A stretch of DNA of 28,406 bases from the IMG/VR virus record IMGVR_UViG_3300030106_000056, positions 1-28,406 of that record. One strand, written 5' to 3'. Positions 3,822-27,648 of this stretch are shown here, piece after piece (position 1 is the stretch's first letter; every line of letters begins with the position of its first letter). The position numbers and the translations under genes were made by a program. The DNA comes from a virus. The notes under the pieces are model-generated. The model worked only from the letters and a program-made list of their open reading frames with translations. It was not told where the DNA came from and did not search any database.

Positions 3822-5509
3822 TAAAAACCTCCGGCGGCAATCCACTCACCATCTGAACCAAACATTGCAGTGATTATTTGATCTGAATTAGGCATCTTAT
3901 ACCGAACAATATCTCCAGCCATTAACACACCCGACTTACCTAATTTGGATATAGTCGTTGAATCTTGTAATCCAAAGTCAAAATTCTTTGTAGGAACGCC
4001 AGACGACCCCATTTCTCGTGCCGTATTTATTTCTGTTATTTTTGCACCAGTTCCAGTAAGAAAATCATCTAATATAAAAGTGCTTTCGCTGCCGCCAACT
4101 ACATCAAATTTTTCTGGAGTTCGCGACCAATTATTTATTTGATTTCCTAATTGTGTTTGATATTCATTAGCTGCAGTTAGTCCCATAGCACTAGACGAAG
4201 CATACAAGCCTCTAAACTGATCTACCGTATTTGAGTAGCCAGTAATATATGCAGGTCTTTTATTAGCAAAATCATATTTATAGAGGTTAGTAACGGCATC
4301 AAACTCACCTGTAATATTTTGATTTTGCAAATTCACTTTGAGGGCAGCATTAAATCTAGTTTCAGGATTTTTAAGTGTTGCGGAAGAGGATGTAGAGTCC
4401 ATATCAGTGATAGCATTTTGAATACCACCCACACGAATCCGTAGCATACCTGCTTGCTCAAGTTTACCAATTTTTTCTGGGCCATCTTCCATAGCCGCTG
4501 CCTCTTGAGTGAGTGTATCCGCATCCTGCATATATATTGCCATAAGTTGTTCCAAATCTGCAGGGCTATTAGCATTACGGATTTTTGCTTCAAGTAAGTC
4601 TAGTGCCAATTCTTTTTCTTTGGCCCCATACTTTTGATAATTAACAAGTTCTTCTCTTAGTTTTTCTTGCTCAAGAATTGCAATAGAAATATCTTGTTCT
4701 ACACCTCGTGTTTGCATTTCCCTAAGTGCAGTAGAAGCATATGTTCCATCAAGTTCAGCCCTTAGTTGTTGTGGAAGTTGTTGATTTGTAATTTCAGCAG
4801 CCTGTGCATTAGCTGCTGCCAAACGGGTTGTAGCTTTTCTGCCTTTAGTTGTTTCCTGAAGGTCTTCTAATTCAGCTTGCGCACGACGTGCGGCTACAAT
4901 TTCATCAGCAGTCATTGCACCAAGACCCGGTATTGTTAGACCCGTATCTGACATAACTGGACCTTGTTGTATATCAGAGCCTATATCACCAAAGGCAGCA
5001 CGGACATCAGATGGATCAGCCTTAAAGATACCAAACTGCGTACCTGCCGCAACACTCGCTGCAGTTCCCTCAAGATCAAGTGTGCTAGGAACTTGTGCCG
5101 CGCCAAACGCAACAGCTTGATCGTCAAAAGATAAAATATCGCCAGTTTCAGTTCCCTGAAACATTGCTTGTGCTGCCGCTTGTCTATTAAACTCACCCGG
5201 TTGTTTAGATAAAACATGAATTTGTTCTTGATTATTAAGTGCTTCGACAAACTCGTCATAACGATCTACCCCACTTTGTAGAACGGTTTGAATTTGACCA
5301 TCCGAAAGACCCATATCGCGTAGGCGTTGACCATACTTTTGATACTCACGAGTAAAAGCTGTCCTATCTTTCACTATTTGTTTTACTTCTTTACGTAAAT
5401 CAGCAGAGGTATTTTTTAAAGTTTCCGCATAATTTTCATCAAACTTTTCCATTTTTTCGGAAAGTCTTTTAGCGCCGCCAGCAATTGCAGATTGAAATCT
5501 AAACGCCAT
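3821..5509 (-). CDS. Putative internal virion protein, 562 aa
   Basis: Not recognised as a named family. The N-terminus (about residues 10-90) and a middle region (about 215-330) are rich in Lys, Glu, Gln and Ala and predicted by eye to be long helices. The last ~130 residues are more mixed and probably globular. No signal peptide or membrane segment is evident. It sits between the 164-aa gene and the 1250-aa gene, with one-base TAATG overlaps at both ends. A strong AAGGAG lies 7 nt before its ATG. The position beside the largest protein and after the tail genes suggests a second inner-core or ejection protein. That role is inferred from context only. Confidence 0.7.
   Translation of the reverse strand: MAFRFQSAIAGGAKRLSEKMEKFDENYAETLKNTSADLRKEVKQIVKDRTAFTREYQKYGQRLRDMGLSDGQIQTVLQSGVDRYDEFVEALNNQEQIHVLSKQPGEFNRQAAAQAMFQGTETGDILSFDDQAVAFGAAQVPSTLDLEGTAASVAAGTQFGIFKADPSDVRAAFGDIGSDIQQGPVMSDTGLTIPGLGAMTADEIVAARRAQAELEDLQETTKGRKATTRLAAANAQAAEITNQQLPQQLRAELDGTYASTALREMQTRGVEQDISIAILEQEKLREELVNYQKYGAKEKELALDLLEAKIRNANSPADLEQLMAIYMQDADTLTQEAAAMEDGPEKIGKLEQAGMLRIRVGGIQNAITDMDSTSSSATLKNPETRFNAALKVNLQNQNITGEFDAVTNLYKYDFANKRPAYITGYSNTVDQFRGLYASSSAMGLTAANEYQTQLGNQINNWSRTPEKFDVVGGSESTFILDDFLTGTGAKITEINTAREMGSSGVPTKNFDFGLQDSTTISKLGKSGVLMAGDIVRYKMPNSDQIITAMFGSDGEWIAAGGF
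3828..3832 (-). promoter_or_regulatory. Ribosome binding site that decides the 1250-aa start
   Basis: On the minus strand GGAGG is followed by a 6-nt spacer (TTTTTA) and then the ATG at 3821-3819. The alternative in-frame ATG at 3845 lies upstream of this site. The site overlaps the last codons of the 562-aa gene, so termination and re-initiation occur at the same place. Confidence 0.8.
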
Positions 5510-8111: not shown

Positions 8112-8311
8112 TATCTAAATCCCATAAATACTGATACCACCATTGCTACTACAAGAATAGTGCTACCCATAATCATTGCTTCTAATCGCCACATGCGTTT
8201 ATCAAGTGCCTCTAACTTTTCCTGCACGTTAGCGTACCGAATGGCACATTCTTTTTCATGTGCTTCCAGTTCCATTTGTGTTTTGAGTACAGGTTCCATT
8301 GACATCTTCAT
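8111..8311 (-). CDS. Small coiled-coil and transmembrane protein, XhlA/holin-like
   Basis: The 66-residue protein has a charged helical N-terminal part (about residues 10-45) with heptad-like Leu/Met spacing, containing KLEALDKRMWRLEAM. One transmembrane segment follows (about 46-64: MIMGSTILVVAMVVSVFMG), ending in Phe-Arg. This layout matches XhlA-type membrane proteins, which assist phage lysis; it could equally be a small virion membrane anchor. No endolysin is next to it. Its start and stop both form TAATG overlaps with its neighbours, and Met3 and Met5 are alternative starts with no better ribosome site. Confidence 0.65.
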   Translation of the reverse strand: MKMSMEPVLKTQMELEAHEKECAIRYANVQEKLEALDKRMWRLEAMIMGSTILVVAMVVSVFMGFR

Positions 8312-10686
8312 TAGTTACCAGCTTCTAGTGCTGCGACTTTCGTCTCAAGAGTTTCGATCTTGGCGATTGCTTCCTGCAGTGCGCCGGTCAGCAGCGGCAC
8401 TAGCTTGGCTTGGTCGATGCCCTGCATGACTGCGTTGCCATCATTATCCACCTCGTTGTGTGTACCGGTGACAGCTTCTGGCACAACAGTCTGTGCCTCA
8501 TGTGCAAGGAAACCATCTACGGTCGTGTCGGCGTCTACAATGAAGTTAAACCGCTTCGGTGCAAGCTGCTTCACACGAGCAATCGCACCGGTCATGTCGG
8601 TTACGTTTTCCTTGAGACGATGGTCGGAAGAGGTGTTATATGCCGTAGACGAGGCGGTAGTTGATATTGTGCCGACGCCAACAGTGCTGCCTCCACCATC
8701 AACACGCTGGAAAGTAACAGCGTTCTGGTTGGTTGCCGTATCCGTACTGGACAAATAAAGAATAGGAAAACCGCCGGTAATGTCTGTTGATTGCAGAGTA
8801 AGAGCATTGCCAGTTCCGGGGTTTTTGATTGAAGCCTGTTCAGTAGCAGCCGTGTTAAAAAGGTTAGTAGTAGTTCCGACCCTCAACCCACCGTCGCTGT
8901 CGATATACATACGAATGTTACCATCACCGTCTGACAAGACGAGGTTATTGTCGGATGTGCGGATGTCTAAGCCACCGCTGTTTCCGTCGTAAGAACCAAG
9001 AAGTGTGTTCTTTGCGCCTGTTGTAATGGCATTACCTGCATTTGAACCTATGGCAGTATTTTTACCAGTACCGCCACTACTATTATTAAAGTTAAATAAT
9101 GACAAGTGACCTACAGCAGTGTTTCCATCCGTGCCTGTACTTGCAGTCATTGATTTATAGCCTATCGCAACATTATCATCACCACTTAAGTTTACTTTTA
9201 GTGCTGATGATCCTATAGCAACATTTTCGTGACTACTATTAGCATTATCCTGTACCCCAAGCAATGCTGAATGACCTATTATAGTATTGTCATCAAATGA
9301 ACCGCTATTGACGTGTTTACCTGCCTCAAATCCTATAGCAACATTTCTTGCTACTCCGCTAGACATGCCGTTCTGCATGGCGTCTTCACCTAAAACAGAA
9401 TTTTCTGTGCCTTGGCTATAACTTCCGCTTAACTTCAACGTGCCACCATAAAGATTTGTATTACCGTTTTGTGTTAAGGAACCTGTATAATTGATGGTGC
9501 CACTGCCATTAATTGTTTTACTATTAAGATCAAGATTGCCGCCTAGTTGTGGGCTAGTGTCATCAACTAGGTTAGACATTCCGGCACCAGACACTTGCGC
9601 ATCAACATAAGTCTTAATTGCTTTTGCAGAAGCTAGGGTTGTGTCTGTTGCAGCTACGGATGATATGTCCGTATCTAAAACCCCAGACTTAAAATTGTCT
9701 ACTTCAATATTAGATACAGTATTGTTGTCAACATCTATTGTTTTGTTTGTAAGAGATTGTGATCCCGCAAGTGTAACATCACCTGCCGCAAACCCACTAT
9801 CGTTGTTGAAAATGCTAAGATTAATCTCACTAGCAGCCTTGCGCGATTCAGTTGTACCGTCTTGCAGAATAAACTCTGTAGTGCCAGAAGCAGCACCTGT
9901 CATGTCAGTCAGTTCGCTGAAGTCAAGGGCAAGCGTTACATCACCGGATGACCCGCCACCTGACAAGCCCGTGCCTGCAGTGACGCCTGTAATGTCACCA
10001 GTATTAGTTGTATAACCAAAACTTTCAATGTGGTCATTGATAGCCGCACTTGTCATCAGTGTGGTATCGTTGTCCGCGAAAGATTCTGAACTTGTAGTAA
10101 CTGCACCTCCATCAAGCTGGCTAAATGTAATATTGCCAAGCGTACCACCTAAAGTTAGATTACCACTACTTGTAACTGTGCCTGTAAGAGTAATACCATT
10201 TACCGTACCTGTTGTACCGACAGATGTTACTGTACCTGTTGTGCTAGAGAAGCTGCTGTCGTTGTTAAAAATACTAAGAGGTATCTCGCTAATGGCTTTA
10301 CGCTTTTGTGCCGTACCGCCGTCGAGAATTACCAGTTCATCTGCGCCTACAGCAGTTTCTGTCATGTCCGTAAGTTCTGTGAGGTCAACGTCAATGGTTG
10401 GCGTTGCACTTTCTCCAGAATTGTTTTGCAGGTCAATCAAGGCACCTGCTGTCAGGCTTGCTACATAGTCACCTGTAGTCTTTGTACCAAGTGCAACAGC
10501 ATTGTTGGCAATGCCTGATGCGTCAATCTGTGGACCTTCACCTGTCGTGCCATCGTGGCTGTGACCAGTTGAAGCGTTAAAAGCAGCTTGAACCGCATCA
10601 AACTCGCCATCAAGATCAGAGGCGTTGATTACGTTCCCGTCTGCAATATTGTTAGCGGTATCATTACGAGTGTAACCTGTACCCAT
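8311..10686 (-). CDS. Tail fibre with YadA-like repeats and C-terminal S74 chaperone domain, 791 aa
   Basis: A receptor-binding fibre is indicated by its modular build. The N-terminal ~60 residues resemble fibre virion-attachment ends (GHSHDGTTGEGPQI at 41-54). A beta-rich shaft follows with an internal ~45-residue duplication (101-146 and 255-299). Residues about 428-565 contain YadA-head-type NVAIG/NTAIG repeats. The end is an intramolecular chaperone domain beginning near residue 686 with SSDHRLKENV, the hallmark of peptidase S74 proteins. These trimerise and then cut themselves next to the conserved Ser. A C-terminal coiled coil (EAIAKIETLETKVAALE) is typical. AGGAG stands 6 nt before the ATG. 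It is followed directly by the 66-aa membrane protein gene. Confidence 0.9.
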   Translation of the reverse strand: MGTGYTRNDTANNIADGNVINASDLDGEFDAVQAAFNASTGHSHDGTTGEGPQIDASGIANNAVALGTKTTGDYVASLTAGALIDLQNNSGESATPTIDVDLTELTDMTETAVGADELVILDGGTAQKRKAISEIPLSIFNNDSSFSSTTGTVTSVGTTGTVNGITLTGTVTSSGNLTLGGTLGNITFSQLDGGAVTTSSESFADNDTTLMTSAAINDHIESFGYTTNTGDITGVTAGTGLSGGGSSGDVTLALDFSELTDMTGAASGTTEFILQDGTTESRKAASEINLSIFNNDSGFAAGDVTLAGSQSLTNKTIDVDNNTVSNIEVDNFKSGVLDTDISSVAATDTTLASAKAIKTYVDAQVSGAGMSNLVDDTSPQLGGNLDLNSKTINGSGTINYTGSLTQNGNTNLYGGTLKLSGSYSQGTENSVLGEDAMQNGMSSGVARNVAIGFEAGKHVNSGSFDDNTIIGHSALLGVQDNANSSHENVAIGSSALKVNLSGDDNVAIGYKSMTASTGTDGNTAVGHLSLFNFNNSSGGTGKNTAIGSNAGNAITTGAKNTLLGSYDGNSGGLDIRTSDNNLVLSDGDGNIRMYIDSDGGLRVGTTTNLFNTAATEQASIKNPGTGNALTLQSTDITGGFPILYLSSTDTATNQNAVTFQRVDGGGSTVGVGTISTTASSTAYNTSSDHRLKENVTDMTGAIARVKQLAPKRFNFIVDADTTVDGFLAHEAQTVVPEAVTGTHNEVDNDGNAVMQGIDQAKLVPLLTGALQEAIAKIETLETKVAALEAGN
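8992..9405 (-). repeat. YadA-head-like repeats in the 791-aa fibre
   Basis: Residues ~428-565 hold recurring N-[VT]-A-[IV]-G motifs at about 448, 488, 505, 522 and 543. Each is followed by a small-residue-rich turn. This pattern is typical of the left-handed trimeric beta-roll of YadA-type adhesin heads. Confidence 0.7.
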
Positions 10687-15720: not shown

Positions 15721-17811
15721 TTAGTATATCTCTATTGCAGCATTCGTTATATAGTATTTTTGTATGTTAGTGTTACTTGTGAAGTCGAGTCGTATGCCAA
15801 CTATGACGCTCGTAATATCTTCTTGACCGCTCGCCGGTACGTTTGATAAATTCAGTGTTACTGTGGTTGGAGACGTAGTATCACCTCCAGCAGATATACT
15901 CGTAGCCGACGAACTATACACACGAAAATTATCACTTTGCGTAGTGTCCCGATGCCACGCCCGTAGCAGAATATAACCTGCGGCTGAGTTACTAGCGCCG
16001 TCCGCGTAGGCAGACGATACTGTAACTCTAAGATTATCTACCCCGGCAGTGTAACTCGGCGCGGAAAGTACGAGTGGAATCCACGCTTGATTAGACGCTC
16101 CTCCTGTTGTTCCTGACCACTGCCCCACCAAAACATTTGCACTGCTGACAACATCGTTGTACATAAGCGCAGCATAACTTATACCTGCAGTATATGGATC
16201 ACTTATAAGTGATATAGGTTTTCCATCATAGTCATTGTGTTCAGCACTCCAAATCATATAATTAGGTGCGCCAGTTGCGCTTGCAGCCGAATTAGTCTGC
16301 ATTTGTATATTGTGTGCATTAGTTTTATAATTATTGCCGTTACAGGTTAGTTTACCTAACGAACAATATTCTATGGGGTTGTCACCCTCCTCTCTAGAAA
16401 GTAATTGACTAAACCAAGTATTGTTTGTGCTAAAGTCACTTGTACCAGAAAATAAAGGGTTGCTTGTTAAAAAACCGGCACTTGTTGGCCCGTATACATT
16501 GCTTGGTGAAAGATTATCTAAAGGTGCAATTCCCGGTTTTTTTAGGCCAGATTCATACGTTACAGTACCCCCGTTTAAATAGGCAGGGTCTGGTGCTAGA
16601 ATATTAGCTAGGCTGGTCGTCTCACTGGCTTGGAAGTACACACTGTTCTGTAAAAACTTATATGTTCCTCCTATATGCTGCGAAGTAGATATGCTATGGT
16701 AAAAGGGCCTGTTCACGCCAGATACATCTTGCCCTGAAATATATAAATTTCCTATATTAGTAGTGCAGTTTAGGTTATTACTATTAAAGAAAACGTAGCC
16801 AGATACTATAATATTTTTAAACGTAACAGAACGCGAAACGCTAGCACTGCCGTTATAAAGTTGTATATATCCATTCGAATTGTCATCATTTCCTGCAATC
16901 CACGGAAAAACTGTAGAATCTCCAGTGTAAATTCCACAGTAGAAACTATGCTGCCGTGAAACAGCAGTAGCAAACATAGGCGCTACGTGAGCAGTAGCTT
17001 CTAATCTGGCATCACTCTGATCTATTCTGCAAGTAATATTATTTTGTGCGCCACCTGAAGTTCGTGCAGCATAACACATAACTACACGCTCGCAGTCATA
17101 CTCAACCTTAGTGCTAGGATTATTGTTTATATTTGCATATTGGTAATTTGCAGTATTAAAAAATTCTATAATACTATAGCCCTCTTGGGCTGTTGTACTT
17201 GTCCAACCTCCAGATACTTTTACTTTTTTATTTATGCAAAACCAGTAGCTTGGTCCCAGACTCAACGGATTAGCGTAGGTGTCTTTTAACCTAAAAACTT
17301 CAATTCCCGTATCGCTTGCGGAATCATGACCTAATTGCAAACGAACAACACTATAAATAAATGGACTTATAGTCACGTCCAATTCGGTTGTAGTGTTACT
17401 AGTATAAAAAGCAGCAAAAAATGCTGGGTGGGACCAGTTGGGAAGAAAACTAGATACATCGCTGTTTTGGAAAGCGAAAAGACTAGATTTATCAGTAGCT
17501 ATCGTGGCGTCAAAACTGCTATTACCTGTTACTGGCCTAAGAGGGGTATAACTGTTACGATAGCTACTACTATATGAATACACATTTCCTTTGCTTTCAA
17601 AAAGTGTAGAAAAAGGTAGACCTTTTATGCGTAACTCATCGCCGTCAGAAAAGGTAATACCGTTAGCACCACTTTGATAGCTATAAGAAGTAAGATAAAA
17701 ACGTGTTATTGAAAAAGGCGCAGCATAAGTGCCATCTTCCGTTGTTGTATCAGTAGTGCCGTTGCCCTGTGTAGTGGCTTCAAGAAACGGGTCTATCCAA
17801 TATATGGCCAT
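15721..17811 (-). CDS. Fibre or spike candidate, 696 aa
   Basis: A large beta-rich protein with high Ser, Asn, Tyr and Thr content and few long helices; no named family is recognised. The opening residues (MAIYWIDPFLEATTQGNGT) and phrases such as ADPAYLNGG and SVTFKNIIVSG suggest a repetitive beta-solenoid or spike body around residues 290-420. The C-terminal ~170 residues look like a separate beta-sandwich or carbohydrate-binding-type region. No catalytic pattern for a depolymerase is obvious. Its ATG overlaps the stop of the 67-aa gene as TAATG. A GGGGG lies about 11 nt upstream. Clustering with the glycine-rich and repeat fibres supports a host-recognition role. Confidence 0.7.
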   Translation of the reverse strand: MAIYWIDPFLEATTQGNGTTDTTTEDGTYAAPFSITRFYLTSYSYQSGANGITFSDGDELRIKGLPFSTLFESKGNVYSYSSSYRNSYTPLRPVTGNSSFDATIATDKSSLFAFQNSDVSSFLPNWSHPAFFAAFYTSNTTTELDVTISPFIYSVVRLQLGHDSASDTGIEVFRLKDTYANPLSLGPSYWFCINKKVKVSGGWTSTTAQEGYSIIEFFNTANYQYANINNNPSTKVEYDCERVVMCYAARTSGGAQNNITCRIDQSDARLEATAHVAPMFATAVSRQHSFYCGIYTGDSTVFPWIAGNDDNSNGYIQLYNGSASVSRSVTFKNIIVSGYVFFNSNNLNCTTNIGNLYISGQDVSGVNRPFYHSISTSQHIGGTYKFLQNSVYFQASETTSLANILAPDPAYLNGGTVTYESGLKKPGIAPLDNLSPSNVYGPTSAGFLTSNPLFSGTSDFSTNNTWFSQLLSREEGDNPIEYCSLGKLTCNGNNYKTNAHNIQMQTNSAASATGAPNYMIWSAEHNDYDGKPISLISDPYTAGISYAALMYNDVVSSANVLVGQWSGTTGGASNQAWIPLVLSAPSYTAGVDNLRVTVSSAYADGASNSAAGYILLRAWHRDTTQSDNFRVYSSSATSISAGGDTTSPTTVTLNLSNVPASGQEDITSVIVGIRLDFTSNTNIQKYYITNAAIEIY

Positions 17812-18014
17812 TATTCGACTGGCCCCCTAGCTTCTCTCCAATTTTCATAGGCCACTTCACACGCATCTAAAACTGTATGTAAAGTTTCCCCCGTACAGTC
17901 CTCCCATACAGTTATAATTTCTCTACCTTCTTCGTCAGAACAAGAAATTTTCACGATAGGTAAATTAACAGGAATAATTTCATACCCACTATTAAGAAAA
18001 CTGTAGTATGCCAT
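17811..18014 (-). CDS. Small protein of unknown function, 67 aa
   Basis: The protein is acidic, with a beta-like first half (EIIPVNLPIVKISCSDEEGR) and a helical second half (VLDACEVAYENWREA). No membrane segment is seen. It lies between two structural genes, with its stop overlapping the next start (TAATG). Only a weak GGA precedes its ATG, so it may be translated by coupling from the 256-aa gene, whose stop is 6 nt upstream. It might be a chaperone or minor part of the 696-aa fibre; this rests on position alone. Confidence 0.6.
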   Translation of the reverse strand: MAYYSFLNSGYEIIPVNLPIVKISCSDEEGREIITVWEDCTGETLHTVLDACEVAYENWREARGPVE

Positions 18015-18020
18015 TAAATG

Positions 18021-18791
18021 TTATCCATTTATAAAATAAATTGTATTACTGTCTGGAGTAAGTGCATCATAAGCTGCTTGAGTCACTACGGAAACGTGGT
18101 AGTTGTCTACTGTATCAGCATTGCCACCGCCGCCGCCACCACTACCATTACTTGCAGCAGTAATTCGGCCTTGAGCATCAACAGTGATGTCTGCACTCGT
18201 GTAGCTACCTGCTGTAACAGCGGTGTTAGCCAACTTGTCCGCATTAACAGCGTCATCTGCAATCATGCCTGTGGCGACTGAACCCGTATCCCCTGTACCG
18301 ACCAGCGTTCCTGATGCTGTGGGTAATACAAGGTCGGCAGAACTAGCTTCAGAGTGTGGCGCACCCTTCAAGGTCTGTGCGTGAGCATTGTTGCTTTCGC
18401 AGTAAAACTTGATCTGGCTGACAGCAGTACCATCATTCTTCAGGTCAATCAAACCACCAGAGATGTACACGTCTCCACCAGCATCTTCGTACACAGCCTT
18501 TCCTGCTGGCTGGGTAATGAAGATGTCTCGTGTGCCGGAAGTCCAGTTTACTGCCGCATCAGAATTGCTTGACTGTAGTATGGTTGTACGAGCAAGCGTT
18601 GTACCGGATGCGGTGTACGTACCAATACCTATCTCAAAGTCTGTGCCATTCGTGCAGCAATAGTATGTCGTATTGCCGTCGCCTACAACAGAAAACGACT
18701 CAAACCCCGTCGCAGCACCGGCAAGTGTGTACGTGCCGGTTCCGGTGGTCGTAGTCGTTTCTTTTACGCGGTCAGCAAGAACGAGGGCCAT
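18021..18791 (-). CDS. Tail-fibre-like structural protein, 256 aa
   Basis: The first ~100 residues (LADRVKETTTTTGTGTYTLA at 4-23, then GTTLARTTILQSSN and IFITQPAGKAV) follow a pattern common at the start of phage fibre and virion-associated proteins. A beta-rich middle contains VDAQGRITAASNGSG, a phrase typical of fibre shafts, followed by a run of Gly. The C-terminus YDALTPDSNTIYFI is typical of small phage tail proteins. AAGGG lies 8 nt before the ATG. It follows the two small beta-rich genes next to the coat protein. Confidence 0.75.
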   Translation of the reverse strand: MALVLADRVKETTTTTGTGTYTLAGAATGFESFSVVGDGNTTYYCCTNGTDFEIGIGTYTASGTTLARTTILQSSNSDAAVNWTSGTRDIFITQPAGKAVYEDAGGDVYISGGLIDLKNDGTAVSQIKFYCESNNAHAQTLKGAPHSEASSADLVLPTASGTLVGTGDTGSVATGMIADDAVNADKLANTAVTAGSYTSADITVDAQGRITAASNGSGGGGGGNADTVDNYHVSVVTQAAYDALTPDSNTIYFING

Positions 18792-19815: not shown

Positions 19816-20919
19816 CTACGCCAAGCAGTATGCCGCAGTAGCGATTGCTTCAGGACGAAGAATCTTGCGACCATACAGGTGCATACCACGAACAATGTCA
19901 GCGAAGCTGTCAGGGTCACGGTAGGTTTCAGTCTTGTTAATCTGCTCTGCAGTTGCAACAGCAGAAGAATGACCAGCCACGATGATGCCCATGTTTGATG
20001 TATTCGGGCCACCTGTAGTGCCTGAGCCAGTACCCAGAGACGGCAGGTTGTTGGACGAATAAACTTGGAAACCGTGGAGGTTATTTACGACAAGACCATT
20101 CTGAAGACCAGAACCACCAAAGTCAGAGTTCAGAAGACGTGAGTCCTCATCCTTCAGAACTTCAATGAAAACAGGGTCAAGAACAAGCCAACGTCCTTGG
20201 GTATCAACATTTTGTTGGTCCATCAGACGTGACATACGTGCAATGATTTGCAGTGGGCTGGCAATACCGCCAGTTGATGCATGCATTGTCACAGTTGTTT
20301 GACCCGGCGCACGGGCTTTAATACCAATACAGTTATTGGCAGAGCCAGCACTTCCGTCTTCAGCAGTGAAGTCAGATGCGTCCAGTGACATGGAAGCCAG
20401 CAGTTCCGCACCTACAAGGTTGGCACCATCCGAAGCGGTGGTAACAGCCTTGCCACCATTAACAGTTGTGTTAACAGCATTAGCAGCGCCATGAATGGCA
20501 GACTGCTTAAAGCCTGACAGGTAGCCAAGAACGTCTTGGTCAAACTGGTCAGCGAGACGGTATGCAGCACGGTCACTTGCCAGAGATTGGAAGTTTACGT
20601 GGCTGTGCGCCTCTTCAATGTCGTCAACCTTAAACGCAAAGTAGTTAGCTTTGTCGATTGTCAGGCTGAAGTCTTCGTCGTCAAGGTCTTGCGGCGTGAT
20701 TGTTGTACCACGTGCGTACTCCTTAACAGTGATTTCGGGTTCCTTGATAATCTTAACGGAATCACCCATTTGTGCGATTTCACCAAAGTAGTCATTATTG
20801 GTGATTGCTTCAACAATAGATGCCTTGCGGAAAGCAAGTTGCACCTGTTTGCTGTAAATTACGGGCGAAAAATTACCGTTAGGAAGATTACCATGCCCGG
20901 CTGCGGTAGTAAAAGCCAT
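19816..20919 (-). CDS. Major capsid (coat) protein, P22/HK97-fold type, 367 aa
   Basis: The N-terminal pattern of an early LAFRKASIVEAITNNDYFGE, then GDSVKIIKEPEITVKEYARG and an acidic DEDFSLTIDKANYFAFKVDD is that of phage coat proteins with the HK97 fold, P22-like branch. Helical IADQ-type sequence and a strand-rich middle follow, ending with the ADIVRGMHLYGRKILRPEA region, typical of the C-terminal axial domain. The length is somewhat shorter than P22 coat (430). It follows the scaffold gene and has its own promoter and a leader of about 190 nt. AGGAG stands 8 nt before the ATG. High expression is expected. Confidence 0.9.
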   Translation of the reverse strand: MAFTTAAGHGNLPNGNFSPVIYSKQVQLAFRKASIVEAITNNDYFGEIAQMGDSVKIIKEPEITVKEYARGTTITPQDLDDEDFSLTIDKANYFAFKVDDIEEAHSHVNFQSLASDRAAYRLADQFDQDVLGYLSGFKQSAIHGAANAVNTTVNGGKAVTTASDGANLVGAELLASMSLDASDFTAEDGSAGSANNCIGIKARAPGQTTVTMHASTGGIASPLQIIARMSRLMDQQNVDTQGRWLVLDPVFIEVLKDEDSRLLNSDFGGSGLQNGLVVNNLHGFQVYSSNNLPSLGTGSGTTGGPNTSNMGIIVAGHSSAVATAEQINKTETYRDPDSFADIVRGMHLYGRKILRPEAIATAAYCLA

Positions 20920-21154: not shown

Positions 21155-22024
21155 TTATCGGGCATTACCCGACACATCATAGACAAACTTTCCAGAACGG
21201 ATAGCTTCCATGATTTCGTCAGACCTCTTTTCGTACTCTTGCGGTGACATTTTCTGTACTTCCGACTCTTTTAAGTACGACGAGGCTTCATTCTCTTGCG
21301 GTTTACTGCGACTATTCTTTGTGGACACAGACTTGGCTGCGTCTTTGTCTGACTTGGGTTTCTTTTTGCCAATACCCATATCAGCTTTGTAGAGGTCAAT
21401 CGCCCTAGCAGCAGAACGTGCGTCGTTGTCGTTTTCATAAAGCGCATCCTGCACCCACTTGGGTTGCTCTTCAGCCCACTCGTGGAAGCTGTCGCTATCA
21501 CGAATAGTGTCAAAGTCTGGGTGCAGTCGCATCAGTTCTGCTTCTGCTTTTTCTTTTGTTGCAGACAGTTGCATCTCGTCAATTGCTTTGATACGATCTT
21601 CAAGTGCGCTTGATTGCTCTCGCGCTTTCTTCATCGCAATTGTTTCTACGATAGCTGCAACGTCTGGATAATCCTTTGCCCATTGTTCAATGTCTTCATC
21701 TGACTTGGGCAGACGCATTTCTTTTTTGGTAGCTGCGTCTAGCTGTCCACGTAGTTCAGCAATCTCTTTTTTAAAGTCGTCAGCTTGCTGCTGTTGATGT
21801 CTACGCAGATCAGAGTATCGTTTCTTGAACGTCTTCTCTTCTGGATTAGCAGGTTCTTGCTCTTCTTCTGCGGCCTCTTCTTTTTCGCCGCGTTGTTCCT
21901 TGAGCATCTGCTCCAGTTCTTCTTCTTCCATCTTGCGTTTCTCTTCATTAGTATACTTACGATTTGCAAACGCTACTTTTTTGGGTGACTGCATTTCTTC
22001 AGCCATGATTTCGGCTTCTGCCAT
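21155..22024 (-). CDS. Scaffolding protein, 289 aa
   Basis: Highly charged and almost wholly helical, with no membrane segment. Residues ~25-60 are Glu/Lys-rich. KTFKKRYSDLRRHQQQQADD with ELRGQLDAATK (about 64-98) predicts a coiled coil. A helical region with DEDIEQWAKDYPDVAAIVET follows. A Lys-rich segment (GIGKKKPKSDKDAAKS) and a C-terminal helix end the protein. This layout, and the place directly before the coat gene, are those of phage assembly scaffolds that template the procapsid and leave before or during packaging. AGGAG stands 9 nt before the ATG. Confidence 0.85.
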   Translation of the reverse strand: MAEAEIMAEEMQSPKKVAFANRKYTNEEKRKMEEEELEQMLKEQRGEKEEAAEEEQEPANPEEKTFKKRYSDLRRHQQQQADDFKKEIAELRGQLDAATKKEMRLPKSDEDIEQWAKDYPDVAAIVETIAMKKAREQSSALEDRIKAIDEMQLSATKEKAEAELMRLHPDFDTIRDSDSFHEWAEEQPKWVQDALYENDNDARSAARAIDLYKADMGIGKKKPKSDKDAAKSVSTKNSRSKPQENEASSYLKESEVQKMSPQEYEKRSDEIMEAIRSGKFVYDVSGNAR

Positions 22025-22096: not shown

Positions 22097-25000
22097 CTAT
22101 TTTTTAGAAGCTAGTCCACCTCGCTTCATCTTTTTGACCTTGGGTTTTTTCTTTGCTGCTAGACCACCGTCCGCAAAAAATCCTCTACCTGTTTCGTATC
22201 CACCTCTAGCATCATCGCCTGTAGTTCTAGAGCCGCCACCAGAGCCAATGCTGTAACTAGTTTGATTTTCAAACGGTGACTCGTTATCGTCTCTTTGTTG
22301 TGCTTGCGAAAGAGTAGGCGCACTTTGTCTTGCAGCATCTAATTCAGCTTGAGAAACAGACACATCAGAAAATGCTTCATCATCATACCCTCTCGCAATG
22401 TTTGCAGCTTCTTCATCCTGCGCCTGTCTTATCGCCTGATCGATAATTGACCCTTCCGTAAAGCCAGACCTACTCATACCATCTCTTTCACCAAAAGCCC
22501 GTCTTCGTTCTTTACTGCCGACTTCCATGTCCTGCGCTTTAGCAATCTTATTCTGAAGTGTACCTTCTTTCTGGGCTTCTCGTTTTGCTTCCTCACCCAT
22601 TGCTTCGGCTCTTCTTGCAGCAAAATCACGTTGACGTGTTTCTAAAGGATTTTTTAATCTGTCTAATATAAAATTGGATTCGTCTCCTTTAAATCCCGCC
22701 TCTTTCATTCTATTGTACACTTCCGCGCTTACAGTAACAGTTTCACCATCTAAGAAAAATGTAGCGTTAACATCTTCTGGTATACCCTTACCTGTAGCAA
22801 GGGCGGCAGCTAGTCCCAGACCTCCACCATCAAAAGACACACCAACTATTGTAGCGCCATTTTTAAAGCCTTTGCCATCGCTAACTCCACCAAGTGCTAT
22901 ACGACCTCCACCGGGGCCGTACCTAGCTTCTTCTTCTTCGCGCCGACGTTCAGAATCTTGATCTGAAGAATACTTATCTCTTACCGATGTGGTTCCTACT
23001 GTAGTAGGTGTCGTTGTCACTTCTTCCGTAGCCGTTGCTGCAGGGTCAACCCAACTATAGCCTTCAGGCAATACCTCACCCGGAAGCAACTCTCCTTTAC
23101 TGCCTTTCTTAATACGCAGTTGAATTTCTTGACCTGCTTCATTGCGGAAGGTAGCAAACTCAAAATCTACCTCTGGAACACCCGGTCCAGTGATCTGCCC
23201 AAAGGTAGGCAAAGGTGTTGGCACTTGCTGTGTAGGTACATATGCCTGTGCTGGGCGGGGTACAGGCTGCACAAATTGTTGTGACGCAGCTTGAACAGGT
23301 TGTGTCGCATATGAGGTAGTAGGCATAGGTGCAGCTTGATATCCTGCAATACCCATCTGCTGATCCTGCTGTGTACCCGGAACGAAACCACCTACATTAT
23401 ACTCTGGTTCGTCGTCCATGTCAAGATCATTTATGTCAAAAGGCAAATCATCTGGCATCGTAGCTTCTTCACTGTTGCCCATCTGCCCCATTGCTTCCAT
23501 CATCTTGAGGCCCATCTTAGCCTCTTGGCGCATCATCATTAGCTTTTCAAGACCAATATAACGAACTACGTCAGCCGGGAATACAAACTCGCCTTCACTA
23601 AGTTGTGCCGGGATATCGTCGCGCACTTCTTCTTGTGTAGAGCCGGGTGGCACTTCATTGCCTGATACCGGGTCATTAGTGCCGCCGTCCTGCTCCAGAC
23701 CACCGTCTGCGAACATATCCATTTGTCTGTCCATAGGTACTACTCCACCTTTTTTCATTTTATATCGAACTTCACTTGGAAGTGGTGTTCCATCAGATGC
23801 AGATAGCGGATCAGGTGCCTCTGCCTTTTTCATATAAGTTACACCTTTTGCGTATACTCTGTCACCTACAACAGTAGCTACTTCCGCAGACTGTACGGCT
23901 TGTCCAGTAGACATATCTACAAATAGATGGCCACTCATAGGATTAAAACCAATCTCTACTACATCGTCATCCATTTCATCTAGTATATTCCTACTATTAT
24001 TAAGCTGTCCATCAACCGACATAGCAGGAAATTTATTTTTTGCTTCAGGAACGTCTACACCTTTTATTTTAGCCGCAATACCTTGTCTACCTTTTTGGTT
24101 TACATTGAATGTAACATTTTCTACTGTGGCAAAAGGACGATATGACAAAGCCTTACCGTTGTAATTTTTTTGATGAAGAGTTTGAAGTTTATCCAAACCT
24201 CTAGGCATATTAGGAATAGTTGAGTTAAGATTGAGACGAATACCAACTTGTGTTCCATCAGGAACTTCTGCTCCAATTAATTTATTGGCTGCTTTAGTAC
24301 CCGCATTTGCTGCTGAAGCATTCTCAACCATAGAGTTTACGGTGCTTGCATCATATTTGCGTAGCAAAGCACCATCTTTCATAGCAGGGTTTATTCCAAT
24401 TTCTAAAGCGTCCGCCTCTTTAAGTGAAACACTAGCACTGCGTCCTGCAATGGAAGACGTATCAATCTTGTCCATATGCTCTGGAAAGACCATGATTTGT
24501 TTGGAGCGGTCTTTGAAGTCAGCAAACAGAACAGAGTCATAGCCTTGTTCTTTTAGTTCTGGTATCTTGTCTTTAAGTTCTTTGCGTTGTTTTTCTGTGC
24601 GCACAACATACGGCTTTTGTAATTCAGATAAATCAAATCTTCCTACTTGTTGTCCTGCTGCAATATCTTCACCATATATATTCTTACCCTTCATAATGCT
24701 ACCAACAGTAACATAATCACCACCGGGTGTTACGTGGACAGATACATCTTTGCCCAGACCACCGACAAACTGTTTCTGCACATTCGGTGCTGTCAAAATT
24801 TTACGTGCAGCGTCTCCTTTGATAGTCTTTTCAAAGTTCCTGCCAATAGAGCGTAGACTAGCATATTCAGATGCAATCTCCGGGTCAAGGGTAAAGTAAA
24901 ATCCTTCTCCTAAAAATTGGTCATTTTTACGAGCAAAGTTTATATCAAAAAAAGGTTCATCTCTTGATCTTGCTTTCGCAGTACCGTGATAGCCAAAAAT

Positions 25001-25399
25001 ACGATTTTCATCTGGTTGTGCCGGAAGTGAAGCGCGTTCTGTTTCGGGTAGTTTATCAAATAACTTACGCAATTCGGATTTAGTAGATCGCAACCCTTTA
25101 GCTGCTGCATCACCAAATACAGGCATTACTCCCAGAAGACCAGCCCCTGCTTCAATTGTAGCACCTAAATAATCTTTTTCATCCAAAGCATCAGAGGTGC
25201 GCTTAATAGCAATGGCTTCACCTACACCGGGAGTGGACTCTGCTAAGAACATTGGACCTTCTTCTTTTACAGTCTTACCAATAGACTTTAAATCAGTCAT
25301 TTGTTCTGCAAGCATTTCTTTTTTGGTGCGAGTATCTACACCAGAGTCAATATCTTTAGCCTCTTGGATGGCTTGCATCTGTGCTTCAGTCGCTACCAA
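22097..25399 (-). CDS. Polyvalent virion protein with ADP-ribosyltransferase-like domain, 1100 aa
   Basis: Residues ~134-320 resemble the ART domain of phage polyvalent proteins: FGYHGT (135-140, candidate NAD-binding His138), GEGFYFT (164-170, candidate Tyr168) and GYDSVLF with KQIMVF (286-305, Gln301 at the usual third catalytic position instead of Glu). It would transfer ADP-ribose from NAD, if active. An apolar Gly/Ala region (about 58-101) precedes it. A small module with HLFVDMSTGQAV (491-502) follows. Next is a conserved-looking block with EVRDDIPAQLSEGEFVFPAD (591-610), then Pro/Gln-rich and charged regions, ending in MKRGGLASKK. Four GG motifs occur. The start is TTG with AAGGG 9 nt before it; the first in-frame ATG is at 25378. 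Likely packaged or ejected, inferred from its place between portal and scaffold. Confidence 0.8.
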   Translation of the reverse strand: MVATEAQMQAIQEAKDIDSGVDTRTKKEMLAEQMTDLKSIGKTVKEEGPMFLAESTPGVGEAIAIKRTSDALDEKDYLGATIEAGAGLLGVMPVFGDAAAKGLRSTKSELRKLFDKLPETERASLPAQPDENRIFGYHGTAKARSRDEPFFDINFARKNDQFLGEGFYFTLDPEIASEYASLRSIGRNFEKTIKGDAARKILTAPNVQKQFVGGLGKDVSVHVTPGGDYVTVGSIMKGKNIYGEDIAAGQQVGRFDLSELQKPYVVRTEKQRKELKDKIPELKEQGYDSVLFADFKDRSKQIMVFPEHMDKIDTSSIAGRSASVSLKEADALEIGINPAMKDGALLRKYDASTVNSMVENASAANAGTKAANKLIGAEVPDGTQVGIRLNLNSTIPNMPRGLDKLQTLHQKNYNGKALSYRPFATVENVTFNVNQKGRQGIAAKIKGVDVPEAKNKFPAMSVDGQLNNSRNILDEMDDDVVEIGFNPMSGHLFVDMSTGQAVQSAEVATVVGDRVYAKGVTYMKKAEAPDPLSASDGTPLPSEVRYKMKKGGVVPMDRQMDMFADGGLEQDGGTNDPVSGNEVPPGSTQEEVRDDIPAQLSEGEFVFPADVVRYIGLEKLMMMRQEAKMGLKMMEAMGQMGNSEEATMPDDLPFDINDLDMDDEPEYNVGGFVPGTQQDQQMGIAGYQAAPMPTTSYATQPVQAASQQFVQPVPRPAQAYVPTQQVPTPLPTFGQITGPGVPEVDFEFATFRNEAGQEIQLRIKKGSKGELLPGEVLPEGYSWVDPAATATEEVTTTPTTVGTTSVRDKYSSDQDSERRREEEEARYGPGGGRIALGGVSDGKGFKNGATIVGVSFDGGGLGLAAALATGKGIPEDVNATFFLDGETVTVSAEVYNRMKEAGFKGDESNFILDRLKNPLETRQRDFAARRAEAMGEEAKREAQKEGTLQNKIAKAQDMEVGSKERRRAFGERDGMSRSGFTEGSIIDQAIRQAQDEEAANIARGYDDEAFSDVSVSQAELDAARQSAPTLSQAQQRDDNESPFENQTSYSIGSGGGSRTTGDDARGGYETGRGFFADGGLAAKKKPKVKKMKRGGLASKK
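24440..25000 (-). other. ADP-ribosyltransferase-like (ART-PolyVal type) domain
   Basis: This segment encodes residues ~134-320 of the 1100-aa protein. The order of motifs matches the H-Y-[EQ] ART group: HGT on the first strand, G-x-G-x-YFT then a helix with A-x-x-YA (176-180), then GYDSV and a final strand QIMVF followed by P-E-H. The third position appears to be Gln, not Glu, so activity is uncertain. Confidence 0.65.
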
Positions 25400-25601
25400 C
25401 TACTTCATCCCTTAATTGTTTTAGTTTGCGTAATGCTGCAATCGCGCCCTGCGACCTGTACATCATTACATTGTCATCAGCTTGTTCAAGTGCCTTTTGC
25501 TGCATTTCAATTACAGCATCAATATAACTACTGAACGCTTCCCACTGGCGGTTGTTGCTGACCCACGGCTTGAGTTTGCTCAATATTTGTTGGTTGTGCA
25601 T
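25386..25601 (-). CDS. Small helical protein overlapping the portal gene, 71 aa
   Basis: Not a named family. It is a charged helical protein containing WEAFSSYIDAVIEMQQKALE and MYRSQGAIAALRKLKQLRDE. Its 5' part lies inside the 3' end of the portal gene in another frame. Two starts are possible: GTG at 25622 (78 aa, no clear ribosome site) and ATG at 25601. I prefer the ATG because AAGGA stands 10 nt before it. The overlap with the portal is then 74 bp. The stop overlaps the start of the 1100-aa gene by 14 bp. A minor head or head-tail role is possible from context. Confidence 0.65.
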   Translation of the reverse strand: MHNQQILSKLKPWVSNNRQWEAFSSYIDAVIEMQQKALEQADDNVMMYRSQGAIAALRKLKQLRDEVVGSD

Positions 25602-27648
25602 TTCCACTAAATCCTTGTTCACCCGGCACCGGAACTTGTCCCATACCTATATTGCCACCACCTGCACCGGAGGTGTCCATAGCATCCGCACCTGCTGGCG
25701 CAGGTTGTTGCCCTTCGGGCAGCGGCGCTTGGAACTCCTTCATCATCTCTGCTTGCAGGGCAGCTTCACTCATATTGTTGGTAACTTTGTCGGGGTCAAG
25801 GTCAAGAGACTTTGCAATCTCACGAATAACATATTGAAACTTTGCAAATGGTGCAAGAGAAGGATTGCTTGCAATCTGCAGGAACTGCATAAGCCGCTGG
25901 CTACGCACTTCATTTTTCATCAGGCTGTCTGTTCCACGTGCTTTGACTTCCAAGTCACCCTTAATTTCTGGATCAAAGTCAAACTGCATATTGAAACGGA
26001 AGAAGCCCTCACCAAGCGGACGTAGAAGATAGTCATCTACATTCTTGATAACGGTCTTGATGCTACCACTGGCAGCACCCATCAGCATAGAGATACCGGA
26101 AGCGGTACGACCTACACCAGTTACTCCTGTCTGTCCATGCGCAAAAGAAGGCAGACCAGTGGACTCGTCAGCAAGCACACGCGCTTTGTCAAACAACATC
26201 ATATTTTCAGACGACACATTAGGAAACTTTGTACCGAAGATAGCTTGACCCGGCGCACCGCCTTGACGACGGAATATCTTACCCGGATACAAGGACAAGT
26301 CTTGTCCCGGCACTAGATTGGTTTCGTCCACCTCTACAATCAAATTACCTGACAATACAGCATTGTCCACAGCCATACGCATAAAGCCATTCATCAGCGT
26401 CTGCGTATCGTCCATGTTTTCTGCAATGCCTACGCCAAAGAAGCTATAGGGGTTCAGTTCATATGGTGCAGCTACATATGGAATTTTTGCTGGCTTAAAC
26501 GGGTTAAGAACCATACGAATAAGTTTGTTGTTTAGTACCCATACGTTTGCTTGCAGTTCATCGAAATCTTTTAGTTCATTGGGAATATCTACGCCATTTT
26601 CTTCCAGCATGTCGGTATCGACCATGCCCCAATACTCAAGCACCTCAAAGCGGTCAATGCCATGCTCCGGTGCGTAGTCGGACAGATCATCTTCCCAGTA
26701 TTTCTTATCGTAGTTTTCACCCATCATAATACATTCGTCAATGACTTGACCACGGAAGTATGGGCGTTTTTTGAGGTTACGCAGTTGGGAACGCGACAGC
26801 TTGTGACGTTCAATTACATATTGTGCTTCATCCATATTGTTAGAGTCAGGGTCTGGATAGAAATTCCACACAGACACATGATCTACTTGTGGCACCGTTT
26901 TGAATACTGGATCATATTCTCCATCGTCGTTCCAGTTTGCGTATTCTTTATCTACAGCAAATGGGCCTTTCATAATGCCAGTGCCAAACAGCGCCATCTC
27001 AAACGAACTACTGCGCAGGTTTTTGTTAGCGCCCGACTCCTCAAGCTGATCGTGGATTTTCTTTTCCATCATCTTAGCCGCAACCATAGCTGGACTAAAC
27101 TCGACTGCAGTTGGGGTTTTACCCGGCCCTTCTTTTAGTTTATCCTGCACTGGCTGCAGTTTTTCTGTAAGCGGCCCTAATTGCTCTATAAGCGACTGCG
27201 CCGTTGCACCTGCAGGAAGATCATTGCCATCACCTGCAAAACCGTAGGGGCTTTGCATTTCGTCTGGTTCTTGTGGATCAAAGTGTACATCCGCTACTAC
27301 GCCTTCAGGAAGTTCTGTAGGTTCAATTGCAAGAGGAAATTTATTATTGGCAAATAGCACATCGACAATTTGACCATATGCAGCTAGTGTCTTAGTTTTA
27401 GTGACCTTAATAAATACACGAGACTTTTCAGATTCAGTAAACTGAACATCCGGCCCGTACAAGCCACGATAATTTCTATATGCTTTTAGCCATCTTTCTT
27501 CATCTTGATAACGATAATCTTCAGCGCGGCGATACCTATCCATAATAAATGGAATAATGCCAGCAACATCACTATCTGCAGCTACAGAGTCGTCTGTATC
27601 CTCCAAAGCGATAGCATCGTCTTCAATCATAATTTCATCATCTGCCAT
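25528..27648 (-). CDS. Portal protein, 706 aa (P22-like size)
   Basis: This is the dodecameric ring through which DNA enters and leaves the head. Supporting features are the length (P22 portal is 725), the motif VWNFYPDPDSNNMDEAQYVI in the middle, VLEYWG, IPYVAAPYELNPYSFFGVGI and the helical stem/crown region from DDTQTLMNGFMRMAVDNAVL onward. GVTGVGRTASGISMLMGAAS is a hallmark-like segment of the portal wing and stem. The C-terminal ~90 residues are Pro/Gly/Gln-rich and flexible. The gene directly follows terL, as usual, with AAGGA 6 nt before the ATG overlapping the terL stop. A small gene overlaps its 3' end in another frame. Confidence 0.92.
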   Translation of the reverse strand: MADDEIMIEDDAIALEDTDDSVAADSDVAGIIPFIMDRYRRAEDYRYQDEERWLKAYRNYRGLYGPDVQFTESEKSRVFIKVTKTKTLAAYGQIVDVLFANNKFPLAIEPTELPEGVVADVHFDPQEPDEMQSPYGFAGDGNDLPAGATAQSLIEQLGPLTEKLQPVQDKLKEGPGKTPTAVEFSPAMVAAKMMEKKIHDQLEESGANKNLRSSSFEMALFGTGIMKGPFAVDKEYANWNDDGEYDPVFKTVPQVDHVSVWNFYPDPDSNNMDEAQYVIERHKLSRSQLRNLKKRPYFRGQVIDECIMMGENYDKKYWEDDLSDYAPEHGIDRFEVLEYWGMVDTDMLEENGVDIPNELKDFDELQANVWVLNNKLIRMVLNPFKPAKIPYVAAPYELNPYSFFGVGIAENMDDTQTLMNGFMRMAVDNAVLSGNLIVEVDETNLVPGQDLSLYPGKIFRRQGGAPGQAIFGTKFPNVSSENMMLFDKARVLADESTGLPSFAHGQTGVTGVGRTASGISMLMGAASGSIKTVIKNVDDYLLRPLGEGFFRFNMQFDFDPEIKGDLEVKARGTDSLMKNEVRSQRLMQFLQIASNPSLAPFAKFQYVIREIAKSLDLDPDKVTNNMSEAALQAEMMKEFQAPLPEGQQPAPAGADAMDTSGAGGGNIGMGQVPVPGEQGFSGNAQPTNIEQTQAVGQQQPPVGSVQ
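25612..25616 (-). promoter_or_regulatory. Ribosome binding site of the small portal-overlapping gene
   Basis: Minus-strand AAGGA lies 10 nt before the ATG at 25601, inside the end of the portal coding sequence. It supports the 71-residue start over the upstream GTG at 25622. Confidence 0.55.

What the first reader, a model, noticed from the sequence alone, without database searches (positions are those of the whole stretch)
24440..25000. ADP-ribosyltransferase-like toxin domain inside a presumed virion protein between portal and scaffold
Seen: ordered motifs HGT, GEGFYFT and QIMVF in residues 134-320 of an 1100-residue protein. Known: ART domains occur in phage polyvalent proteins and may be injected with the genome to modify host targets (as T4 Alt does). 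Inferred: this phage carries an ART delivered in the particle, tethered to conserved head-associated segments. The third catalytic position is Gln instead of Glu, so specificity or activity may differ.
Basis: partly seen in the sequence, partly recalled or inferred. Interest (0 to 1): 0.75.

Follow-up and report, generated by a model that had tools for sequence, protein, structure and literature searches.

The report
Swappable ADP-ribosyltransferase cargo in phage head
A marine phage protein made next to the head parts carries an enzyme domain that probably tags bacterial molecules with ADP-ribose. The enzyme sits in a slot of the gene that related phages fill with other enzymes or leave empty, which suggests a payload bay for proteins injected with the phage DNA.

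Summary
The motifs are real and exactly placed: HGT at residues 138-140, GEGFYFT at 164-170 and QIMVF at 301-305 of the 1100-residue ORF 22097-25399 (-). The domain is a divergent ART-PolyVal ADP-ribosyltransferase. Pfam PF18760 matches all 10 members scanned. AlphaFold models retrieve H-Y-E-type ARTs at the top of PDB and ART-PolyVal proteins at the top of a viral library. H138, Y168 and Q301 are invariant in all 25 relatives aligned, and most close pairs give dN/dS of about 0.05. The Gln is therefore a fixed trait of this clade, not decay.

The larger result is the setting. The window belongs to the HMO-2011 type of marine podophage. The protein has a conserved carrier part (residues ~549-1100) encoded between portal and scaffold-like gene in every testable relative. 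N-terminal to it lies a cassette exchanged almost exactly between start codon and carrier. A near-identical phage (97.8% DNA identity through terminase and portal) has a different cassette. Cassettes span 0-1216 aa and include ART, metallopeptidase, lysozyme and methyltransferase domains.

Presence in virions, injection, catalysis and target remain untested. ART in phage polyvalent proteins is known. I found no earlier description of this swappable carrier or of the invariant-Gln clade.

The parts
22097..25399 (-). Carrier protein with ART cargo, 1100 aa, TTG start (alternative ATG at residue 8)
23756..25400 (-). Exchangeable N-terminal cassette: DNA identity with L013, L012, L006, L025 and L026 stops at 25401/25402 and resumes at 23751-23755, apart from isolated patches inside the ART segment
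25055..25252 (-). Residues 50-115, Gly/Ala/Val-rich PGVGEA..VFGDA module, reused at different positions in cassettes with other cargo (L069, L073, L063, L043); possibly membrane-active (inference)
24446..25042 (-). ADP-ribosyltransferase domain (ART-PolyVal-like), residues 120-318; H138, Y168, Q301
23849..24190 (-). Phage_L5_gp82-like domain (PF25735), residues 404-517, function unknown; also present in carriers without this ART
23330..23755 (-). Conserved anchor (residues 549-690) with GEFVFPADVVR motif; weakly similar to tape measure proteins
22097..22177 (-). Conserved Gly/Lys-rich C-terminal tail (FADGGLAAKKKPKVKKMKRGGLASKK)
25386..25600 (-). Small ORF (~70 aa, start approximate) overlapping the portal 3' end and, by 14 nt, the carrier start; a similar ORF sits there in carriers with no cargo and in HMO-2011 (gp50)
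25528..27648 (-). Portal protein
21155..22024 (-). Conserved ORF (phrog_13678, function unknown) in the scaffold position before the capsid gene
19816..20919 (-). Major capsid protein (P22-like by its HMO-2011 homologue)

Best explanation
The domain is an H-Y-E-type ADP-ribosyltransferase of the ART-PolyVal group with Gln in the third catalytic position. It is one interchangeable cargo of a head-associated carrier protein in HMO-2011-type marine podophages. Shown here: predicted fold, motif conservation, purifying selection, synteny and cassette exchange. Inferred steps: the conserved C-terminal half places the protein in or on the particle near the portal. The protein leaves with the DNA like an ejection or tape-measure protein, possibly helped by the Gly-rich N-terminal module. 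In the cytoplasm the ART then transfers a single ADP-ribose from NAD+ to a host target, protein or nucleic acid, at the start of infection, to blunt defence or redirect the host. The Gln points to mono-ADP-ribosylation rather than polymer formation.
For: ART fold: Pfam ART-PolyVal in 10/10 members. Profile search of PDB: 11 of the 12 matches are exotoxin A-type ARTs over the HG motif, but weak (E 0.05-1.6). AlphaFold model pLDDT 80, pTM 0.74, with H in strand 1, Y in strand 2 and Q in the last core strand. Foldseek viral library: 13 hits below 1e-3, top hit ART-PolyVal at 2.7e-6. A compact relative's model hits exotoxin A ART domains at 2.5e-4, and the top 36 PDB hits are all ART-superfamily structures. 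Function kept: H, Y, Q invariant in 25/25; dN/dS 0.037-0.07 in nine comparisons. Head setting: portal upstream in 70/70 and scaffold-like gene downstream in 69/69 anchor loci; the anchor weakly resembles tape measure proteins, the only function named among 30 out-group records, 20 of them so annotated; a pelagiphage with a weak anchor match has the gene in the same slot. Swappable cargo: sharp boundaries against L013, whose portal is 100% identical at protein level; cargo 0-1216 aa; other cargo families. Gln: E988Q cuts PARP1 elongation 2800-fold, and PARP1 E988 mutants are described as mono-ADP-ribosylating (PMC6486540).
Against: No direct evidence of protein in virions, of injection, of NAD binding or of a target. 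The Pfam score of the window domain is below the curated cut-off, TM-scores to solved ARTs are modest (0.35-0.5), and the window model alone gives no PDB hit below 1e-3. Tape-measure similarity is weak (E 0.008 to 5). Four comparisons among more divergent relatives give dN/dS of 0.13-0.58. Some relatives encode the ART as a separate ORF outside a carrier, so attachment to the carrier is not obligatory.
Confidence: 0.66

Rival explanations
1. The domain has the ART fold but is no longer a transferase: it binds NAD or ADP-ribose, or acts only as a structural or binding module, because the catalytic acid is replaced by Gln.
For: Gln in place of Glu/Asp is invariant. In PARP1, E988Q loses 2800-fold elongation activity (PMC6486540).
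Against: H, Y, GEG, the helix EY and the whole DRS-QI-VFPE strand are invariant across relatives down to ~40% identity; a pseudo-enzyme would be expected to drift in H and Y too. Losing polymer elongation is not losing mono-transfer.
Confidence: 0.17
2. The ART acts inside the producing cell late in infection, for example on host or competitor factors, or against superinfection or defence, and is co-expressed with head genes without being packaged.
For: Standalone ART ORFs exist in related viral contigs, one of them between TerL and portal. Packaging is not shown.
Against: In HMO-2011-type genomes the cargo is fused in frame to a conserved carrier kept even when cargo is absent (13 of 71 complete cases), and other cargo includes lysozyme domains that suit cell entry.
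Confidence: 0.15
3. The domain targets NAD itself (NADase) or ADP-ribosylates nucleic acid, serving as counter-defence rather than as a protein modifier.
For: ART superfamily members include DNA-, RNA- and NAD-directed enzymes, and virion NAD/ADP-ribose enzymes have been proposed to counter NAD-based immunity (PMC9503650).
Against: No feature here points to nucleic acid or free NAD as the target. Iyer et al. place polyvalent ARTs with protein-modifying relatives.
Confidence: 0.15
4. The ART match is a chance resemblance and the region is an unrelated virion domain.
For: Score below the Pfam cut-off for the window sequence on its own.
Against: All relatives match, and two AlphaFold models and two structure libraries agree.
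Confidence: 0.03

Closest known systems
ART-PolyVal domains of phage polyvalent proteins (PF18760; e.g. Roseovarius Plymouth podovirus 1 vRNAP protein, Salmonella phage Mutine small protein)
   Same: Same fold family, HG[TS] motif, GxGFYxT motif (Mutine), GYD before the last strand; in the podovirus a large multidomain protein
   Different: Invariant Gln where Mutine and RPP1 have Glu and where Iyer et al. state Asp for the family; longer insertion between strands; sits on the HMO-2011 carrier, not on an RNA polymerase
T4 Alt
   Same: Proposed delivery with phage DNA and action on the host early in infection
   Different: Alt is in the R-S-E clade and is not fused to a portal-adjacent carrier; packaging is established for Alt, not here
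Exotoxin A / tankyrase-type H-Y-E ARTs (fold level only)
   Same: Top structural hits and shared first two motif regions
   Different: About 15% identity or less, Gln for Glu, no translocation or receptor domains, a phage-bacterium rather than eukaryotic setting
HMO-2011 gp49 and Roseobacter CRP phage homologues
   Same: Same carrier part in the same genome slot
   Different: HMO-2011 gp49 has no cargo; none of the phage records searched carries this ART
Polymorphic toxins / MuF-fusion effectors
   Same: One conserved delivery part with exchangeable effector domains
   Different: Here the exchanged part is N-terminal and the delivery part is tape-measure-like rather than RHS, T6SS or MuF

Membership tests
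ART superfamily, H-Y-E/H-Y-[acid] clade | ART fold | tested here: met
   AlphaFold models plus Foldseek: top PDB and viral hits are ARTs
ART superfamily, H-Y-E/H-Y-[acid] clade | His in strand 1 within HG[ST] | tested here: met
   H138 invariant 25/25; strand 18-23 of the model
ART superfamily, H-Y-E/H-Y-[acid] clade | Tyr in strand 2 | tested here: met
   Y168 invariant 25/25; strand 50-53 of the model
ART superfamily, H-Y-E/H-Y-[acid] clade | Glu or Asp at the start of the last core strand | tested here: not met
   Q301 invariant 25/25 at that position, so it is filed as a variant with H-Y-Q
ART-PolyVal (PF18760) | Match above the curated Pfam cut-off (31.2 bits) | tested here: inconclusive
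   Window domain 30.0 bits; relatives straddle the cut-off, up to 32.4 bits with neighbouring segments
ART-PolyVal (PF18760) | Located in a multidomain protein of a portal-terminase phage | tested here: met
   1100-aa protein with a second domain, next to the portal; relatives add LPD23 and metallopeptidase-like segments
Enzymatically active ART | NAD+ binding and ADP-ribose transfer | not testable with these tools
   Needs biochemistry
Virion-packaged, injected effector (as T4 Alt) | Protein present in purified particles and delivered to the host | not testable with these tools
   No proteomics found; only synteny and weak tape-measure similarity
R-S-E clade (Alt/VIP2) | Arg-Ser-Glu active site | tested here: not met
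   The motifs are H-Y-Q

The most novel reading that the evidence does not exclude
HMO-2011-type phages, among the most abundant in the sea, use one conserved tape-measure-like carrier as a general loading platform. Its N-terminal slot is swapped as a unit between near-identical phages, giving each a different injected enzyme. The window's payload would be a catalytically active H-Y-Q ADP-ribosyltransferase, a form for which I found no biochemical characterisation.
Probability: 0.45. Interest if true: 0.75.

Novelty: new variant of a known kind. Interest (0 to 1): 0.55.

Why it matters
If the carrier takes cargo into the host, a library of naturally exchanged effectors can be read off by looking at one position in one of the commonest marine phage groups. 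It would also make it directly testable what the first injected proteins do to SAR116, SAR11 and Roseobacter hosts. The invariant Gln gives a natural test of whether the third catalytic acid is needed for ADP-ribosyl transfer.

Tried and rejected
The ART domain has no match among 50,697 annotated phage records, and none among the GTDB genomes with the patterns tried (limited by pattern seeds). Single-sequence PDB search gave nothing significant. A plain chance motif was rejected. A pseudogene was rejected: open ORF, low dN/dS. A co-encoded ADP-ribosyl glycohydrolase or macrodomain as partner was tested in 17 and 18 records: no macrodomain anywhere, and a glycohydrolase only in a record with no cargo, so no ART-eraser pairing was seen. 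The Phage_L5_gp82 domain could not be given a function from the literature. Whether Gln is described at this position elsewhere could not be settled from the held papers.

Full report
What is there. The window is a 28,406-base viral record. The ORF at 22097-25399 on the minus strand encodes 1100 residues from a TTG start that overlaps a small upstream ORF by 14 bases. It lies between a portal gene (25528-27648) and an ORF at 21155-22024 that precedes the capsid gene. Its relatives among annotated phages are the HMO-2011-type marine podophages: HMO-2011 itself, Roseobacter CRP phages and a spring-water genome. In those records the gene holds the same slot and is annotated as hypothetical.

The ART domain. 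Pfam finds ART-PolyVal in the full protein (E=6.5e-4), in the isolated domain (1e-6) and in all ten members scanned (best 1.9e-7), with scores around the curated cut-off. Searches of viral contigs gave 39 loci. In the alignments H, GEG-YF, EY, GYDS and DRS-QI-VFPE are unchanged across proteins down to ~40% identity. The AlphaFold model of the window domain (pLDDT 80, pTM 0.74) puts H in the first strand, Y in the second and Q in the last core strand. Its best PDB hits are exotoxin A, tankyrase, diphtheria toxin, MbcT and RES proteins, i.e. members of the ART superfamily, but none below 1e-3. Its best viral hits are proteins named ART-PolyVal (2.7e-6). A relative without the long insertion gives PDB hits at 2.5e-4, and ART-superfamily structures fill the top 36 places. 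I regard the fold as established at the level that prediction allows.

The glutamine. The third position is Gln in every aligned relative (25 of 25). Iyer et al. give H-Y-D for polyvalent ARTs; the Mutine, kuttervirus and Roseovarius podovirus ARTs examined here have Glu at or next to the aligned place, and a further relative has an aromatic residue there (the placement in the last two is by eye). So the position varies within the group, and Gln is the fixed state of this clade. Nine comparisons give dN/dS of 0.04-0.07, two more could not be computed because synonymous sites are saturated, and four comparisons among more divergent relatives give 0.13-0.58. The domain around the window is thus under strong constraint. 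In PARP1 the equivalent E988Q change mainly destroys chain elongation, and E988 mutants are described as mono-ADP-ribosylating (PMC6486540). That makes mono-transfer the natural prediction, but it is an inference.

The carrier and the cassette. A search with residues ~549-660 found at least 597 encoded relatives (list truncated), of which 80 loci were kept. Wherever both could be seen, the portal lies upstream (70 of 70) and the scaffold-like gene downstream (69 of 69). Among 71 carriers with a complete 5' end, the part in front of the anchor ranges from 0 to 1216 residues; 13 have none, as in HMO-2011. Clustering the cargo regions of 90 aa or more in the collected carriers gave 48 groups, including some truncated regions. 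Pfam finds in them ART-PolyVal (including a second, different ART in L049 and L097), LPD23, SprT-like/DUF6782 metallopeptidases, phage tail lysozyme, LysM and methyltransferases (several matches are below curated cut-offs). The clearest case is L013: its DNA is 97.8% identical to the window through terminase and portal up to base 25401, two bases before the start codon, and about 95% identical again from 23755, the first codons of the anchor. In between only a 192-base ART patch aligns. L012, L006, L025 and L026 break at the same two points. The window's own Gly-rich module (residues 50-115) recurs with unrelated cargo. The cassette is therefore exchanged as a unit and also recombines internally.

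Is it delivered? The carrier is kept without cargo, lies beside the portal in every testable case, and its GEFVFPADVVR segment weakly resembles tape measure proteins. Of 30 out-group records at E up to 10, 20 are annotated as tape measure and the other 10 are unnamed. One weak match, in pelagiphage HTVC103P, lies in the same portal-X-capsid slot. Tape measure proteins are virion proteins that leave with the DNA (general knowledge), so an ejected protein is the simplest reading. Lysozyme cargo fits an entry role. No proteomic data were found, so packaging and injection remain unproven.

What is new. ART domains in phage polyvalent proteins, and their proposed injection, were described in 2017 and 2022 (PMC5512222, PMC9503650). 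The main comparative paper on HMO-2011-type phages does not mention polyvalent proteins or a hypervariable slot in the text searched. I therefore file the domain as a variant of a known kind: an H-Y-Q clade of ART-PolyVal on a carrier with a swappable N-terminal slot.

Limits. The 80 anchor loci are the best matches to the window's anchor and not a random sample; within them only two carry this ART clade. Contigs are metagenomic. Alignment of the third position with distant ARTs rests on motif and predicted structure.

Noticed in passing
L049 cargo residues 981-1070; L097 cargo residues 134-196: A second, clearly different ART-PolyVal-like domain occupies the same cargo slot in other carriers, so ARTs have probably entered the slot more than once.
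   Followed up: partly
L005, L006, L012, L013 (N-terminal part of the carrier): LPD23 and an HEIQH zinc-peptidase-like segment precede the ART, suggesting a peptidase that could release or process cargo.
   Followed up: partly
window 23849-24190: Phage_L5_gp82-like domain of unknown function follows the ART and also occurs in carriers without this ART (L003, L004, L038, L041, L055, L067).
   Followed up: partly
L115:1369-2409: In another phage group the same ART clade is encoded in an ORF between the terminase large subunit and portal genes.
   Followed up: partly
G011 (L087 record) 17924-18673: An HMO-2011-type record with an empty cargo slot encodes a DraG-like ADP-ribosyl glycohydrolase; the ART-bearing records tested do not.
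   Followed up: partly
window 8311-10686: ORF with a C-terminal Peptidase_S74 (intramolecular chaperone) domain, probably a tail fibre or spike.
   Followed up: no
window 15721-17811 and 69-3845: Large ORFs (696 and 1258 aa) with no Pfam match in the structural module.
   Followed up: no
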